Shown here: piece by piece, positions 16,313 to 58,343 of the stretch | Layout of the letters: each line of letters begins with the position of its first letter | Numbering within the stretch: the stretch's first letter is position 1 | DNA from: Oscillospiraceae bacterium | GTDB lineage: Bacteria; Bacillota; Clostridia; Oscillospirales; Ruminococcaceae | Assembly: GCA_031280965.1 (NCBI GenBank) | Contig: JAITFZ010000024.1 | Span: 1-64,000, forward strand | Direction: 5' to 3' | Length of the DNA: 64,000 nucleotides | Notes under the pieces: model-generated | Told to the model about the DNA's origin: nothing | Database searches by the model: none | What the model saw: only the letters and a program-made list of their open reading frames with translations | Program-made: the position numbers and the translations under genes

Positions 16313-17263
16313 TTAATCGTTCACTAACGCCGCGCCGATAATTCCCGCATCATTTCCGAGCCTGCAGATTAAAATCTCGGTGTTTTTCACGCTGTTTCTT
16401 GAATAAATTTCCCTTGCGATTAACTCCCGAAGCGGCACGAGCAGATAATCCCCTTCGTTACAGACTCCACCGCCTATACAAAGGCAATCCGGCTGAAACG
16501 TATTGATTACGTTCGTAATTCCGCAAGCCAAATATTTGATATATTCGTCCACAACGCTCTTCCCTGCTTTATCACCCTGCTTCGCCGCCGCGAACGCCGT
16601 CCGCGCACTGACTTTTCTCATCTCTGAAGCTATCCGGTGCATTTTACTGTTCGGGTTACGTGCCATAACTTCTTTTGTCATGCGGATTAAACCGGTCGCC
16701 GAGGAAAAAACCTCAAAACAGCCCTTTCTTCCGCATGTACATGGCGGACCGTCAGCGGAAATAACCGTATGCCCGATTTCACCGCCTGCATAATTCTCAC
16801 CGTAGAAAAGCTTTTTATTTATGATTATGCCGGAGCCGACGCCGGTTCCGAGCGTAATAACAACCGCGCTGTTACAGCCTTTCGCCGCACCGGCAATAAA
16901 TTCGCCGTAAGCCGCCGCGCTTGCATCGTTTTCAAGGAAAACAGGCAGTTCTGTTTCCCTTTGCACATCAGCCGCCAACGGTACGTTGTGCCAGTTCAGA
17001 TTCCCCGAAAATTCGACTGCGCCGGTGCTTTTGTTACAACTCCCGGGACAGCCGAGCCCGATGCTTACAGCCCCGCCGTGCAACGGATTTTTCGCGGCTT
17101 CGGACTGCACTTTACGGATTATCCCGATTATATCGGCGAGAATCTCCTTATAAGCCCGCTCCTTACCCGTTTTCACGGATTTTTTAAAAAGCAGTTCGCC
17201 GTCTTTTCTTACCGCGCCCGCCGAAATGTTCGTCCCGCCTATGTCAACGCCAATATAATACAT
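16313..17263 (-). CDS. glk: ROK-family glucokinase
   Basis: The 316-residue protein phosphorylates glucose with ATP. It has the N-terminal phosphate loop DIGGTNISAG (residues 7-16), FLENDASAAAYGE with the catalytic D113, LGTGVGSG (139-145) and the ROK zinc site H165 with CTCGRKGC (C175, C177, C182). An in-frame extension to 17416 is rejected: the promoter at 17514-17542 gives a transcript in which AAGAAAGGACTTTATG precedes the ATG at 17263, and VDIGGTN then starts at the usual place. The leader belongs to a repeated family shared with pfkA and an HD hydrolase gene. First gene of the ROK-ilvD-radC operon. Confidence 0.92.
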   Translation of the reverse strand: MYYIGVDIGGTNISAGAVRKDGELLFKKSVKTGKERAYKEILADIIGIIRKVQSEAAKNPLHGGAVSIGLGCPGSCNKSTGAVEFSGNLNWHNVPLAADVQRETELPVFLENDASAAAYGEFIAGAAKGCNSAVVITLGTGVGSGIIINKKLFYGENYAGGEIGHTVISADGPPCTCGRKGCFEVFSSATGLIRMTKEVMARNPNSKMHRIASEMRKVSARTAFAAAKQGDKAGKSVVDEYIKYLACGITNVINTFQPDCLCIGGGVCNEGDYLLVPLRELIAREIYSRNSVKNTEILICRLGNDAGIIGAALVND

Positions 17264-17268
17264 ATTTT

Positions 17269-17292
17269 CATAAAGTCCTTTCTTCACCGATG
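17269..17292 (-). repeat. Leader-repeat core in front of the ROK gene
   Basis: The sense sequence AAGAAAGGACTTTATGAAAA directly before the start codon is identical to those before pfkA (58144) and the HD gene (31509). It carries the Shine-Dalgarno site and an ATG that opens a 10-codon ORF (MKICIILALT, stop TAG) overlapping the ROK start in another frame. Upstream of 17292 the sequence departs from the longer unit seen at the other two loci. Confidence 0.75.
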
Positions 17293-17306
17293 TGGATTTC
17301 ATGGAT

Positions 17307-30793: not shown

Positions 30794-30837
30794 GTGTGCG
30801 GGCGAACAGCGCGCTACGCGTTGTTCAGCCCCTACAC
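30794..30837. repeat. GTAGGGG hairpin element 1
   Basis: On the minus strand GTGTAGGGGCTGAACA pairs imperfectly with TGTTCGCCCGCACAC around a GC-rich core. It overlaps the 3' end of the HD gene by 6 bases. Related hairpins containing GTAGGGG occur at 54977-55013 and 61828-61852. Confidence 0.5.
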
Positions 30838-31503
30838 GATTTTAGAATTATTCATAACTAATCTGAAACTGATTCCCAGCGCTTGCGCCGAACGTCTGCA
30901 AAGCGACATTCTTTGCAGGAAAATCTCGAAATATTCCATAATCGAGCTGATTTCCTTGTCTATGATTAAATCTAAGAACAGCTCGCTTTTATCCTCTGAA
31001 AAATAATAACGCGACTGCACACAGGCATAATTTACCCTGTCGTGAATGTCGTGTATATCCCAGTTTTCGCCGCAATGCCTTACGCGGGAACGGCGAACGT
31101 CCATCTTATCCGCTAAAATCACAGCGGCGGCAATCGGGTTGACGGGCGTTGCAGTATGTTCATCGTGGTTGCCTATGGCTGAAATAATCACCGCGATTTC
31201 TTCGGCGGGCATGGCGAGCTTGTCAAGCAGGTTGAGTGCCATGATTGCGCCGGTTTGGGCGTGATTGCTGCGGTTAACGCAGTTGCCTATATCGTGCATG
31301 TAACCCGCGATTTGTGCGAGTTCGCACTCCCGCTCCGAATAACCCAGCGTACTTAAAATATCATAAGCCGCTTCTGCCGTGATTGCCGCGTGAGGACCCG
31401 AATGTTCGGTGTAACCCATAGATTCCAGCGCCTTGTCGGCGTGGTTGATGTAGGTTTGAATATCGCTGTTTTGTTTTATATACTTATAGGTGACATTACT
31501 CAT
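30832..31503 (-). CDS. HD-domain phosphohydrolase
   Basis: The 223-residue protein has the metal-binding HD pattern: H38 (GPHAAITAEAAYDIL), H70-D71 in GYMHDIGN, H81 in SNHAQTGA, NHDEHT (about 107-112) and the closing D in ILADKMDVRRSRVRH. Such enzymes hydrolyse phosphate esters, often nucleotides or cyclic dinucleotides; the substrate is not evident. The start at 31503 is preceded by the AAGAAAGGACTTTATG leader shared with the ROK and pfkA genes; a frame extension upstream runs through that leader. It is divergent from the GH11 gene. Confidence 0.88.
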   Translation of the reverse strand: MSNVTYKYIKQNSDIQTYINHADKALESMGYTEHSGPHAAITAEAAYDILSTLGYSERECELAQIAGYMHDIGNCVNRSNHAQTGAIMALNLLDKLAMPAEEIAVIISAIGNHDEHTATPVNPIAAAVILADKMDVRRSRVRHCGENWDIHDIHDRVNYACVQSRYYFSEDKSELFLDLIIDKEISSIMEYFEIFLQRMSLCRRSAQALGISFRLVMNNSKIV

Positions 31504-31508
31504 GTTTT

Positions 31509-31611
31509 CATAAAGTCCTTTCTTCACCAACGAGGAATAAAAATGACATTTTCCCCGCCTCGGTTGTATTTTGTTTCAAACTGTTTTCATAAAGTCCTTT
31601 CTCCGCCAACG
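31509..31611 (-). repeat. Leader repeat of the HD gene: one full and one partial unit
   Basis: The full 73-base unit (31509-31581) matches those before pfkA at most positions, including the sense blocks GTTTGAAACAAAATACAAC and AGAAAGGACTTTATGA. A second copy starts 79 bases upstream at 31588 but diverges after about 24 bases. The unit is inside the transcript predicted from the promoter at 31624-31652. ATGAAAACATGA at the gene start encodes Met-Lys-Thr-stop, overlapping the HD start codon. Confidence 0.8.
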
Positions 31612-31623
31612 TCAATTTTTATA

Positions 31624-55537: not shown

Positions 55538-56338
55538 TTACTCACCTAATTCATAAGCCCGCTTTGTACAGGCTTCACAGGCGCTTTTAACAAGCTTTTC
55601 AAGCCCGCCCGAGTAAAATTCATCAAGCCCCGCAAGCGTAGTCCCGCCCTTTGAAGATACCTGCTCTATAAGCTCGTTTACGCCTAAACCCGAATCCGTC
55701 ATCATCTTCGCCGCGCCAATCAGCGCGTGAGAAAATAAATTGAGCGCCGCTTTTTCGTTAATCCCCTGCCCTGCCGCATAATCGGCAAAGTATTTCGCAA
55801 AAAGATATATGAAAGCGGGAGAGCTGGCGTTTATGCAAATGATTTCGTTCATTTTATCAAGCGGAATAATCTCAAACGCACCGCAACTTTCAATAAGCGA
55901 CCGCGCAAAAGCAAATTCCTCGCCGCTTACCGCTTCATCACAGGCAATTGCGCTTGAACCCAAACCAAGAAGCATCGGCATGTTCGGCATAACAAGAATG
56001 ACCTTTGTGTTTTCGCCTGTATACCTGCGTATGAACTCGGCGGAAATACCGGCGCATAGAGATATAAGCACGGTTCCGGCGGTTAAGTCGTCTTTTATTG
56101 TTTGGAGCAGTTCCGATATTTGCTGAGGTTTGCAGGCGAGGACTATGTATTTGCACGTTTTTGCAATTTCGCTCCCGCTTTCAAATACGGAAAAGTTGCT
56201 TTTTCTCAGTTCATCTCTTTTATTTAAGTCAGCGTCATATATATGAAGCCGTGCTTCCTGTGCCGCTTTTGATGCGGAAAAGCCTTTAATCAGTGCCATA
56301 CCCATATTACCCGCGCCGATGAAGCCTAAAGTTGTCAT
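55538..56338 (-). CDS. proC: Pyrroline-5-carboxylate reductase
   Basis: ProC performs the last step of proline synthesis. The start at 56338 follows AAAGAAAGGA. The 266-residue protein has the NAD(P) loop LGFIGAGNMGMALIKGF, VLACKPQQISEL, SLCAGISAEFI and the C-terminal dimer region with SSKGGTTLAGLDEFYSGGLE. Its 5' end overlaps the folT gene by 32 bases, so the two are likely co-transcribed. Confidence 0.95.
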   Translation of the reverse strand: MTTLGFIGAGNMGMALIKGFSASKAAQEARLHIYDADLNKRDELRKSNFSVFESGSEIAKTCKYIVLACKPQQISELLQTIKDDLTAGTVLISLCAGISAEFIRRYTGENTKVILVMPNMPMLLGLGSSAIACDEAVSGEEFAFARSLIESCGAFEIIPLDKMNEIICINASSPAFIYLFAKYFADYAAGQGINEKAALNLFSHALIGAAKMMTDSGLGVNELIEQVSSKGGTTLAGLDEFYSGGLEKLVKSACEACTKRAYELGE

Positions 56339-56981
56339 ATATTTTCCTTTCTTTGCCTGCACCCTGTGATGCTCTTTGATATGCTTTATTTATTATAGGC
56401 AACAGCATAAACATCAATGCTAAATCAACAGGCAGCTTAGCAGTATTAAGCCACCCCGACCTAAACCACGCATAAATCCAAAACGATTGCTCCGACAGGA
56501 TTTCTGCTGCTCTGCCCGGCTGTAAAATAAAAAATATAACTATAAGTGTATTGATTACAGAATAGCACACAATCACCACAATCAATCTTGCGATGACAAT
56601 TCGCAGAGTCTGCCATGCCGCCCAGACCGCGCCGCCGCGACTGCCGCCTGCGCCGCGTGAGCCGTAACCGTACAGGAAGATTCCGTATATTAAAGCTTCC
56701 AACATTCTGCTGGGAATAAAAGCGGCAACAAACGGAAAAGGACTGAGGAGACCGGTAATAATATCGCACGGGATTGCCGCTATGACCGCGACCACAGGAC
56801 CGTACAACATTCCGATTGCTGCGAGGGCGAGATAGCCGATTGTCACCTTCAGTATTTCACTGAATTGAGGCGCGTAAGCGTTAAGCGCTATATAGAGCGC
56901 GCATAAAATACCTGTTGTCGTCAGGCAACGCGGACTTTTAAGTTCCCGCGCCGAAGCGCGGAACATTACAAAAATGTTCAT
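56307..56981 (-). CDS. folT: ECF transporter substrate-binding subunit FolT (folate)
   Basis: The start at 56981 follows AAGGAGG. The 224-residue protein has six membrane helices and the folate-type S-component start SARELKSPRCLTTTGILCAL, then GYLALAAIGMLYGPVVAVIA and AFIPSRMLEALIYGIFLYGY. It delivers folate to the shared ECF ATPase module encoded elsewhere. A THF riboswitch directly upstream supports folate as the substrate. Confidence 0.9.
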   Translation of the reverse strand: MNIFVMFRASARELKSPRCLTTTGILCALYIALNAYAPQFSEILKVTIGYLALAAIGMLYGPVVAVIAAIPCDIITGLLSPFPFVAAFIPSRMLEALIYGIFLYGYGSRGAGGSRGGAVWAAWQTLRIVIARLIVVIVCYSVINTLIVIFFILQPGRAAEILSEQSFWIYAWFRSGWLNTAKLPVDLALMFMLLPIINKAYQRASQGAGKERKIYDNFRLHRRG

Positions 56982-57044
56982 ATAAACATTCCTCCTTTTT
57001 TGCACACTAACAAAGAGGAGTCGTTTATGCCCCTAATTATAATG

Positions 57045-57145
57045 TACAGCGAGATGCGGAAAACCTACCGCGGCTCTTTGAGCCTTCGTCCGCTTGACAA
57101 CTCTCCGTTCAAACGGCACTTAACGCAGGGATTCCTACTCTGTAA
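57045..57145 (-). promoter_or_regulatory. Tetrahydrofolate (THF) riboswitch controlling folT
   Basis: The minus-strand leader has the conserved THF-aptamer blocks in order: AGAGTAGGAATCC, TGCGTTAAGTG, GGACGAAGG, CCGCGGT and CCGCATCTCGCT, where the last pairs back to the first. Downstream, ACTCCTCTTT can pair with AAAAAGGAGG, the folT ribosome-binding site, so folate binding probably blocks translation. A TATAAT sequence stands just upstream of the aptamer. Confidence 0.88.
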
Positions 57146-57178: not shown

Positions 57179-58138
57179 TCAGAAACTAATATCCATCGCT
57201 ATTCGGTAGAGGTCGTTCTCGAAAGACTTTTTCATGGAAAGCGCCTCCTGAATATCAAAGTCAACGATATTGCTGTGCCGCATACCAATGACGCGGTTGC
57301 TGTAGCCTTTAATCAGAAGTTCCACTGCGTAATGCCCCATCTGGCTTGCCACAACCCTGTCGCGCACGGTGGGCGTTCCGCCTCTCTGCACATGTCCGAG
57401 AATCGTAGCGCGAGTATCAACGCCTGTGGCATGTTCGATTTTCTTTGCTATTTCCTGTGAGTTGCCTATTCCCTCGGACACTACGACGATGAAATGGTGT
57501 TTGCCGGTGGTTTGCGTATTTTGTATGCGCTCAATTACGTCGTCAACAGTATAAGGCACTTCCTCGGTGATAATATAAGTTGCGCCGGTAGCTATGCCGG
57601 TATTGACCGCAATGTGACCGGCGTGTCTTCCCATTACCTCTACCACGGAGCAACGGTCGCAACTCTGCATGGTATCGCGAAGCTTGTCAATCAGCGCCAT
57701 TGCCGTATTCATGGCGGTATCATAACCTATTGTGTATTCGGTCATGGCAATATCGTTATCAATCGTTCCCGGAATAGCCACACAGGGAATCCCTCGCGCC
57801 GATAAATCCGCCGCACCCCTGAAAGAGCCGTCGCCGCCGATTACCACAAGCCCGTCAATTCCTTCCCGGATACAGGTGGTTTTAGCTTTTTGCAGACCTT
57901 CATCAAAGCGGAATTCGTTGCAACGGGCTGTATAAAGCATGGTTCCGCCCCTTTGAATTATGTCCGAAACACTGCGTATATTGAGCGGAATTATATCGCC
58001 GTTAATAAGCCCGTTATATCCTCTTCGTACACCCATAACAGTCATGTTGTGTTTTAAGGCTGTTCTTGTTACCGCCCGGATTGCGGCGTTCATGCCGGGA
58101 GCATCGCCGCCGCTGGTTACGATTCCTATTTTCTTCAT
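57179..58138 (-). CDS. pfkA: ATP-dependent 6-phosphofructokinase
   Basis: PfkA commits fructose 6-phosphate to glycolysis. The 319-residue protein has IGIVTSGGDAPGMNAAIRAV, RRGYNGLI, GGDGSFRGAADL, IPGTIDNDIAMTEYTIGYDT (catalytic Asp) and VEVMGRHAGHIA, with GHVQRGGTPTVRDR for the allosteric site. The start at 58138 is chosen because the frame extension upstream is the repeated leader. It lies downstream of dnaE, as in many Firmicutes, but with its own promoter. Confidence 0.97.
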   Translation of the reverse strand: MKKIGIVTSGGDAPGMNAAIRAVTRTALKHNMTVMGVRRGYNGLINGDIIPLNIRSVSDIIQRGGTMLYTARCNEFRFDEGLQKAKTTCIREGIDGLVVIGGDGSFRGAADLSARGIPCVAIPGTIDNDIAMTEYTIGYDTAMNTAMALIDKLRDTMQSCDRCSVVEVMGRHAGHIAVNTGIATGATYIITEEVPYTVDDVIERIQNTQTTGKHHFIVVVSEGIGNSQEIAKKIEHATGVDTRATILGHVQRGGTPTVRDRVVASQMGHYAVELLIKGYSNRVIGMRHSNIVDFDIQEALSMKKSFENDLYRIAMDISF

Positions 58139-58143
58139 ATTTT

Positions 58144-58295
58144 CATAAAGTCCTTTCTTGAATAACAAGGAATGAAAACGACGTTCTCCCCGTTTCAGTT
58201 GTATTTTGTTTCAAACTTATTCTCATAAAGTCCTTTCTTCAATAACGAGGAATGAAAACAACGTTCTCCCCGTTTCAGTTGTATTTTGTTTCAAC
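58144..58295 (-). repeat. Leader repeat of pfkA: two tandem units
   Basis: Two nearly identical units of about 73 bases lie at 58144-58216 and 58224-58295 (period 80). Each has in the sense direction GTTTGAAACAAAATACAAC (one base shorter in the distal unit), a GAAACGGGGAGAACG block and AAGAAAGGACTTTATGA. The distal copy's ATG opens a 27-codon ORF (MRISLKQNTTETGRTSFSFL then VIQERTL) running through the proximal copy and stopping at the TGA just before pfkA. The proximal ATG encodes Met-Lys-Ile-stop overlapping the pfkA start. Confidence 0.85.
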
Positions 58296-58343
58296 CCTGT
58301 ATTCTCCCCTACTATAATAAATTGAATACTATTTTCCATATTA

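What the first reader, a model, noticed from the sequence alone, without database searches (positions are those of the whole stretch)
58139..58295. Repeated leader cassette with Shine-Dalgarno site and overlapping mini-ORF before three unrelated genes
Seen: pfkA, the HD hydrolase (31503) and the ROK glucokinase (17263) all begin with the same sense leader AAGAAAGGACTTTATGAAAA, so that an ATG lies just upstream of the true start. Before pfkA and the HD gene this ATG reads Met-Lys-(Ile/Thr)-stop with the stop overlapping the gene's ATG (ATGA). A unit of about 73 bases is present twice before pfkA and one and a half times before the HD gene; each gene has its own promoter upstream, so the units are in the 5' UTR. 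Inference: a dispersed, expanding 5'-UTR element controlling initiation or re-initiation. Two of the three genes are sugar kinases of glycolysis, so it may mark a regulon.
Basis: partly seen in the sequence, partly recalled or inferred. Interest (0 to 1): 0.75.

Follow-up and report, generated by a model that had tools for sequence, protein, structure and literature searches.

The report
Repeats inserted exactly at start codons
A bacterium and several of its relatives carry many copies of an 80-letter DNA repeat slotted exactly in front of the start signal of unrelated genes, where the repeat appears to bring its own ribosome landing site; I found no description of a bacterial repeat that sits with this precision.

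Summary
The unit is 80 nt, not 73. The window's genome holds 134 near matches to its 3' end, none to a reversed control. Of 91 loci examined, 85 stand in sense directly before an ATG-started frame; in 160 contiguous kb of a relative 49 of 54 loci do, against 21% of random positions. Most orthologous sites compared in relatives lack the copy, and copies group by genome. A young burst shows base-precise insertion: native Shine-Dalgarno and spacer, 80 nt, ATG, no duplication. The genes are unrelated, so a regulon is not supported. Best reading: a start-codon-targeted dispersed repeat that brings its own ribosome-binding site and a short TTG-led frame. Placement, empty sites and recent spread are shown; translation from the element, coupling and mobility are inferred. 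Conserved RNA structure is not supported; the short frame is broken in 34 of 79 copies. MITE-type ends are absent by inspection, and neither reverse transcriptase nor Y1 transposase domains track it.

The parts
58139..58218 (-). gene-proximal 80-nt unit before pfkA, ending ATGAAAAT directly before the ATG
58219..58298 (-). distal 80-nt unit before pfkA (tandem copy)
58304..58309 (-). likely native Shine-Dalgarno (GGGGAG) of pfkA, 5-nt spacer, then the element
   Evidence: G009 and G011, without the element here, have GGAG-spacer-ATG
58151..58159 (-). element-borne Shine-Dalgarno-like AAGAAAGGA, 12 nt before the pfkA ATG
58143..58214 (-). short frame of the proximal unit, TTG to TGA (23 codons plus stop)
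58223..58294 (-). short frame of the distal unit, TTG to TGA
58135..58146 (-). mini-frame ATG AAA ATA TGA whose stop overlaps the pfkA ATG
57179..58138 (-). pfkA, ATP-dependent 6-phosphofructokinase
31504..31582 (-). 79-nt unit before the HD-type gene
31583..31612 (-). 5'-truncated unit upstream of it
30832..31503 (-).
17264..17296 (-). 5'-truncated element, last ~30 nt, before the ROK gene
16313..17263 (-). ROK-family glucokinase-like gene
   Evidence: TIGR00744 252.5 bits, under its cut-off of 260.35

Best explanation
The sequence belongs to a family of dispersed ~80-nt repeats that enter genes in sense, exactly between the native Shine-Dalgarno spacer and the ATG. Each unit is a miniature cistron cassette: it starts with a TTG-led short frame placed behind the resident Shine-Dalgarno, and ends with its own Shine-Dalgarno (AAGAAAGGA) about 12 nt before the gene's ATG. 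The host gene is thereby handed from its old ribosome-binding site to the element's, so insertion costs little, and copies can accumulate and tandemly duplicate at gene starts. Shown: dispersal, orientation, base-level placement, empty sites in relatives, a recent burst, grouping of copies by genome. Inferred: that ribosomes start the gene from the element's site, that translation of the short frame is coupled to the gene through stop/start overlap, and that an insertion mechanism, not selection alone, picks start codons. How it moves is unknown.
For: 134 near matches, reversed control 0. G000: 85 of 91 loci directly before an ORF start; element ATG to gene ATG is 8 nt in 63, 11 in 13, 0 in 8 and more in 3 of 87 copies. 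Contiguous sequence: G014 49 of 54 loci and G000 14 of 16 by rule; random positions pass at 20-21%, or 5-6% under a stricter rule that 48 of 54 G014 loci pass. Empty orthologous sites: pfkA in G009, G011, G012; 9 of 9 G011 and 8 of 12 G014 orthologs of element-bearing G000 genes (one of the 8 unclear); 20 of 23 G000 orthologs of element-bearing G014 genes (counted by inspection). Young G046 copies: 19 full-length first units within 3 mismatches, 6 identical, 17 followed directly by ATG, 15 with a Shine-Dalgarno-like 5-mer upstream against 3.5 in shuffles. The same upstream in 33 of 57 G000 copies (8.9 shuffled) and 16 of 37 G014 copies (4.6 shuffled). Tree of 139 copies from three genomes: 14 changes of genome label, shuffled mean 57.6, minimum 48. 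AAGG core 10-13 nt from the ATG in 39 of 54 G014 units. TTG frame open in 143 of 213 full-length copies, the other two frames in 11 and 29; in a set at most 75% identical 30, 3 and 11 of 56.
Against: The short frame is intact in only 45 of 79 full G000 units; stop-making changes are not depleted (10 seen, 9.0 expected, 42 copies). No clear covariation, and three of four copies fold no better than shuffles. Some copies are not at a recognisable gene start: 6 of 91 loci in G000, 5 of 39 in G046, some before decayed frames, 1 of 6 in G005. Within G014 the native Shine-Dalgarno is hardly rarer for diverged copies (9 of 18 against 7 of 19). No mobilising enzyme was found. No expression data exist here.
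Confidence: 0.72

Rival explanations
1. An ordinary non-autonomous mobile repeat inserts widely; only insertions at ATG survive because the unit carries a Shine-Dalgarno site, and all others are purged or lost by drift.
For: The unit looks like a safe passenger; a few copies lie elsewhere.
Against: Neutral sites such as convergent intergenic DNA should hold many copies (argument, not modelled); 49 of 54 contiguous loci are at starts and the young G046 copies are already exact (17 of 19 followed by ATG). No terminal inverted repeat or target duplication is visible at the ends (by inspection).
Confidence: 0.17
2. A host regulatory leader (leader-peptide attenuator or translational coupler) that spread because it benefits its genes, a true regulon.
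For: TTG frame open far more often than the other frames; its stop mostly next to the gene start; ATGA enriched; complementarity between inner TTTTCAT..TCC and the 3' GGA..ATGAAAA.
Against: Frame broken in 34 of 79 copies, stops not depleted, no clear covariation, no Rfam match in the window or in 8 loci, unrelated genes, and mostly different gene sets in G000 and G014.
Confidence: 0.13
3. A retroposed short RNA (SINE-like): reverse-transcribed and inserted, with 5' truncation.
For: 22 of 87 G000 copies are 5'-truncated or too short to class, with the 3' end kept (copies were found through that 3' end).
Against: In the young G046 set only 4 of 31 copies listed have a replaced 5' end, one of them explained by an 11-nt deletion, so truncation looks like later loss; RVT_1 is absent from G004, G005, G006, G007, G009, G010 and G014 and present once each in G000 and G046; no duplications.
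Confidence: 0.05
4. Vertical inheritance of an ancient common leader, with loss in relatives and homogenisation within each genome by gene conversion.
For: The rpsK copy looks shared by G014 and G046; pfkA carries diverged copies in three genomes. Homogenisation would also make copies group by genome.
Against: Most orthologous sites compared differ; six identical copies with different flanks in G046.
Confidence: 0.06

Closest known systems
Rickettsia palindromic elements (RPE)
   Same: Dispersed ~100-150-nt repeats compatible with translation, each with an open frame, found in unrelated genes (PMC10969869 and PMC2229807, passages seen).
   Different: RPEs are palindromic and lie inside genes, fused in frame, or between genes; the present element lies before the ATG, is not palindromic over its length and carries a ribosome-binding site.
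MITEs (ERIC, RUP, Correia/NEMIS)
   Same: Short, non-autonomous, many copies, near genes.
   Different: Those three have terminal inverted repeats and target duplications (table in PMC2229807, passage seen); neither is seen here, and MITEs are not known to me to be tied to start codons.
REP elements with RAYT transposases (recalled)
   Same: Dispersed extragenic repeats.
   Different: Not palindromic; Y1 transposase domain not found in nine of the ten genomes with element matches, one weak match in G005.
Leader-peptide attenuators and translational couplers (recalled)
   Same: Short upstream frame, stop next to the next start, possible Shine-Dalgarno sequestration.
   Different: Those belong to few genes and conserve frame or structure; here many unrelated genes, frame often broken.
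Spliced-leader relics in dinoflagellate genes (recalled, no paper seen)
   Same: Tandem copies of a leader directly before unrelated genes.
   Different: Nothing here points to trans-splicing or reverse transcription.

Membership tests
MITE | terminal inverted repeats | tested here: not met
   ends of the young consensus (AAGTTTGAAAC... / ...TTAATGAAAAT) are not complementary; by inspection
MITE | target site duplication | tested here: not met
   19 young copies: left flank mostly Shine-Dalgarno plus spacer, right flank ATG in 17; no shared direct repeat (by inspection)
Rickettsia palindromic element | placed inside reading frames, palindromic | tested here: not met
   placement before ATG; palindromy by inspection only
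REP / RAYT | Y1 transposase in the same genomes | tested here: not met
   PF01797: 0 in G000, G004, G006, G007, G009, G010, G011, G014, G046; one weak hit in G005; some of these genomes are incomplete
Retroelement (SINE-like) | reverse transcriptase available | tested here: not met
   PF00078: 0 in G004, G005, G006, G007, G009, G010, G014; 1 each in G000 and G046, 2 in G011; some genomes incomplete
Retroelement (SINE-like) | 5' truncation in young copies | tested here: not met
   4 of 31 listed copies have a replaced 5' end; one is explained by an 11-nt deletion (by inspection)
Riboswitch / known RNA leader | match to an Rfam family | tested here: not met
   window at gathering cut-offs and 8 loci at E <= 1: only THF riboswitches elsewhere and one hit under its cut-off
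Structured RNA leader | covarying helices | tested here: inconclusive
   three candidate helices pair in 77-86% of cells, more than their slid versions, but do not clearly exceed shuffles (25, 500 and 208 of 500 shuffles reach the percentage paired); RNAalifold finds none
Leader-peptide attenuator | short frame kept by selection | tested here: inconclusive
   frame open more often than the others but intact in 45 of 79 copies; synonymous excess p = 0.08, stops not depleted
Translational coupler | gene expression depends on translation of the upstream frame | not testable with these tools
   needs reporters or ribosome profiling

The most novel reading that the evidence does not exclude
A mobile element whose insertion machinery recognises translation start sites (through DNA context or through the mRNA-ribosome complex) and so replaces, gene after gene, the host's own ribosome-binding sites with copies of its own, until about a third of the genes in one genome stretch start from an element-borne site.
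Probability: 0.45. Interest if true: 0.92.

Novelty: categorically new. Interest (0 to 1): 0.82.

Why it matters
Bacterial mobile repeats are usually filed as intergenic or intragenic. This family occupies one functional position, the start codon, with base precision, at roughly two hundred of the places checked, ribosomal-protein genes among them. If its mobility is confirmed, an element can rewrite translation initiation across a genome without silencing genes, and some machinery must read start codons as insertion targets. It gives a natural experiment in swapping ribosome-binding sites: same gene, with and without the element, in sister species. It also warns annotators: the gene's frame can be open back through the element (...KKGLYENM... 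before pfkA), so automatic start calls may be too long.

Tried and rejected
Regulon of sugar kinases: rejected from the gene list. Conserved RNA structure: no consensus structure over 69 diverse copies; a stem that looked covarying by eye, C-G to T-A, gave Fisher p = 0.51; three registers counted without clear support; of four copies folded, one was more stable than shuffles (z -2.2) and three were not; one search used a wrong register and is ignored. Leader peptide kept by selection: only weak support. Retroposition and IS200/IS605-type movement. Phage or plasmid carriage: no match of the unit in phages or plasmids, and none of a 27-base pattern in viral contigs. A direct-repeat-flanked copy in G046 (L112/L271) was read first as a target duplication, then as a plain 77-nt tandem duplication that includes 12 nt of the gene start. 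Paper searches for prior description listed nothing whose title or abstract start describes such an element; most subscription papers and all preprints are not held.

Full report
1. What is in the window. The 20-mer AAGAAAGGACTTTATGAAAA occurs exactly at three places on the minus strand and with one mismatch at two more; shuffled windows give 0.01 on average. Read on the minus strand, the two units before pfkA are each 80 nt: 58139-58218 and 58219-58298. The first begins AAGTTTGAAACAAAATACAACTGAAACGGGG and ends GGACTTTATGAAAAT, and the pfkA ATG follows at once. Before the HD-type gene there is one unit of 79 nt and a 5'-truncated one; before the ROK gene only the last ~30 nt. pfkA is confirmed by family models; the ROK kinase scores a little under its curated cut-off.

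2. Genome-wide. In the window's genome the exact 17-mer AAAGGACTTTATGAAAA occurs 76 times (36+/40-) and its reversed control 0 times; the 20-mer with up to 3 mismatches occurs 134 times (70/64), control 0 (the listing was cut, so what follows covers the copies in the regions I fetched). In those regions 116 distinct copies with at most 4 mismatches were found. Of these, 87 are followed by an ATG opening a frame of at least 45 codons, 23 are upstream units of tandem arrays, and 6 are neither (the split of the last 29 is mine from the listing). Two of the 87 are themselves upstream units (L033, L076), so 85 of 91 loci stand directly before such a frame; a few of these frames may not be real genes (L059 looks doubtful). 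The element's ATG lies 8 nt before the gene's in 63, 11 nt in 13, 0 nt in 8 and further in 3 of 87 copies. By a loose alignment rule 65 of 87 are full length (44 short, 21 with a 21-nt longer middle; at least two of the 44, L028 and L031, align poorly) and 22 are truncated at the 5' end or too short to class.

3. Unbiased stretches. To avoid choosing by the 3' motif I scanned contiguous DNA with a profile of the whole element. G000, 444 kb: 16 loci, 14 at gene starts. G014, 160 kb: 54 loci (78 units, 16 tandem, up to 4 units), 49 at gene starts. Three more lie before genes shorter than my 60-codon rule that have homologs in G000 (by eye ribosomal L36 and L30, and a 59-aa protein). G011, 240 kb: none (an earlier, looser scan gave one hit at E 0.04). 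My crude gene calls give 156 genes of at least 90 aa in the G014 stretch, so roughly a third carry the element, many of them in the ribosomal-protein operons. Control: random positions pass the same rule in 20-21% of trials, and in 5-6% when the point 60 nt upstream must also lie outside gene bodies. Element loci pass the stricter rule in 48 of 54 (G014 C1), 5 of 6 (G000 C20) and 6 of 7 (G000 C16) (the window itself was not in this control).

4. Empty sites. Upstream of pfkA, G011, G009 and G012 (82-88% identical PfkA) have plain GGAG-spacer-ATG or GGGG-spacer-ATG; G014 has GGAGAAGTATTA, then one unit of another subfamily, then ATG; G046 has a very diverged unit. G009 carries the element elsewhere. 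Of orthologs of element-bearing G000 genes, 9 of 9 in the fetched G011 stretches and 8 of 12 in G014 lack it (one of the 8, L080, is unclear). Of orthologs of element-bearing G014 genes, 20 of 23 shown in G000 lack it. These counts are by inspection of the pairs that passed my filters. In the murD locus of G000 and G014 the element appears to have separated the upstream gene from its own stop codon, so that the upstream protein now ends inside the element (my reading). At several genes two or three genomes carry different subfamilies (pfkA, glmU, murD and a gene beginning MNKKxSLGVCISLIAVACAVTF).

5. A young burst. In G046, a 32-nt tail pattern is found 48 times with at most 3 mismatches, control 0. 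Among fetched G046 loci, 19 full-length first units lie within 3 mismatches of one 80-nt sequence, 6 identical. 15 of 19 have a Shine-Dalgarno-like 5-mer 3-20 nt upstream against 3.5 in shuffles, and 17 of 19 are followed directly by ATG, 16 by ATGA; the other two have ATA or ACG there. Such flanks read native Shine-Dalgarno, short spacer, AAGTTTG...GAAAAT, ATG. A separate scan of fetched G046 loci put 33 of 39 before an open start, 1 at an edge and 5 elsewhere; of those five, one lies before what I read as a spoIVA-like remnant (name recalled) and one before a frame with an early stop. The native Shine-Dalgarno is rarer in the other sets, 33 of 57 in G000 and 16 of 37 in G014 (shuffled 8.9 and 4.6). 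That is what one expects if it becomes dispensable once the element supplies one, but within G014 the trend is weak (9 of 18 higher-scoring copies, 7 of 19 lower). A tree of 139 copies (G014 67, G000 52, G046 20) needs 14 changes of genome label against a shuffled mean of 57.6 and minimum of 48, so copies group by genome; independent amplification or homogenisation would both do this.

6. Distribution. Exact 24-mers in the named genome collection occur in two MAGs labelled Oscillospiraceae, Pal332_bin19 and Lab288P3bin172 (records very near the window's genome may be left out there). Contig lengths and coordinates suggest that they are G046 and G014. That these come from termite guts is recalled from the isolate names and not tested. 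A profile of 69 diverse copies run over 71 genomes of the genus finds G014 83, G000 74, G006 69, G046 67, G005 64, G007 46, G009 35, G010 8, G004 3, G011 1; ten others have a single hit with E between 0.0019 and 0.009, and 51 have none (only 65 candidates per genome were scored, so the counts saturate). A deeper run on seven genomes gave 150 matches for 150 scored in G006. A family scan, 347 genomes of 126 genera with 13 candidates scored each, found only G000 and one hit at E 9.6e-5. Of the best-scoring loci fetched, placement before an open start holds in G004 3/3, G005 5/6, G006 6/6, G007 6/6, G009 5/5, G010 5/5.

7. Mechanism. The sequence AAGAAAGGA is complementary to the usual 3' end of 16S rRNA (recalled; not checked in this genome). 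The AAGG core stands 10-13 nt from the ATG in 39 of 54 G014 units measured, while the element's own ATG or TTG is about 4 nt away, close for initiation. So the gene's ATG is the likelier start; this is an argument from spacing, not a test. The TTG near the 5' end opens a frame that runs through the unit in 143 of 213 full-length copies, while the other frames do so in 11 and 29; most of those 143 then stop within about a dozen nt of the next ATG, and 25 do not stop in the stretch read. Yet the frame is broken in 34 of 79 G000 copies and stop changes are not depleted, so a kept leader peptide is not shown. In class-8 copies ATGA is strongly enriched (56 of 63 against 93 of 196) but not in class 11 (5 of 13); the two classes mostly belong to different subfamilies. 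Either coupling through the overlapping stop or a target preference would do this. Inner TTTTCAT and TCC could pair with the 3' ATGAAAA and GGA, but counts do not clearly exceed shuffles.

8. Movement. Most young copies are full length, without duplication, and sit at the A of the ATG. Reverse transcriptase and Y1 transposase domains do not follow the element. I saw no autonomous version, and did not search for one beyond these domains. Purely random insertion plus selection is hard to fit with so few copies in other non-coding DNA, but I did not model it.

9. Novelty. Papers: the reviews PMC10969869 and PMC2229807 were seen as passages; the rest only as listings. None of what I saw describes a repeat fixed to start codons. 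By the defining features tested it is neither a MITE nor an RPE, REP or known RNA leader. I therefore call it categorically new, with the reservation that it belongs in the wide class of small dispersed repeats, and that its mobility is inferred from copies, not seen.

Noticed in passing
window 57045-57144, minus strand: THF riboswitch (Rfam RF01831, 92.2 bits) between pfkA and the 232-aa gene at 56307-57005; one also lies near pfkA in G014 (L101).
   Followed up: no
window 57179-58168, minus strand: The pfkA frame is open back into the element (MLFKKGLYENM...), so automatic start calls may add about 10 false residues.
   Followed up: partly
L042 and L061: Genes that look like serine recombinases (L042: weak CcrB-like match far under its cut-off; L061 by eye) also carry the element, so it may enter mobile genes too.
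   Followed up: no
L233/L267 (G046): A copy stands before what reads as a broken spoIVA-like gene start (MTTTSIYQDIAQRTDGNIYIG then stop; name recalled).
   Followed up: no
G000 long-variant copies, e.g. L045, L047, L039: A 21-nt longer version carries the palindrome GCTTCGTTTTAAAACGAAGC upstream of the Shine-Dalgarno site; 21 full and 5 truncated of 87 copies.
   Followed up: partly
L112/L271 (G046): A 77-nt tandem duplication that includes the first 12 nt of the gene, leaving a second ATG copy upstream.
   Followed up: partly
G145:C4:23136-23195: Single weak profile hit (E 9.6e-5) in another genus of the family; may be chance.
   Followed up: no
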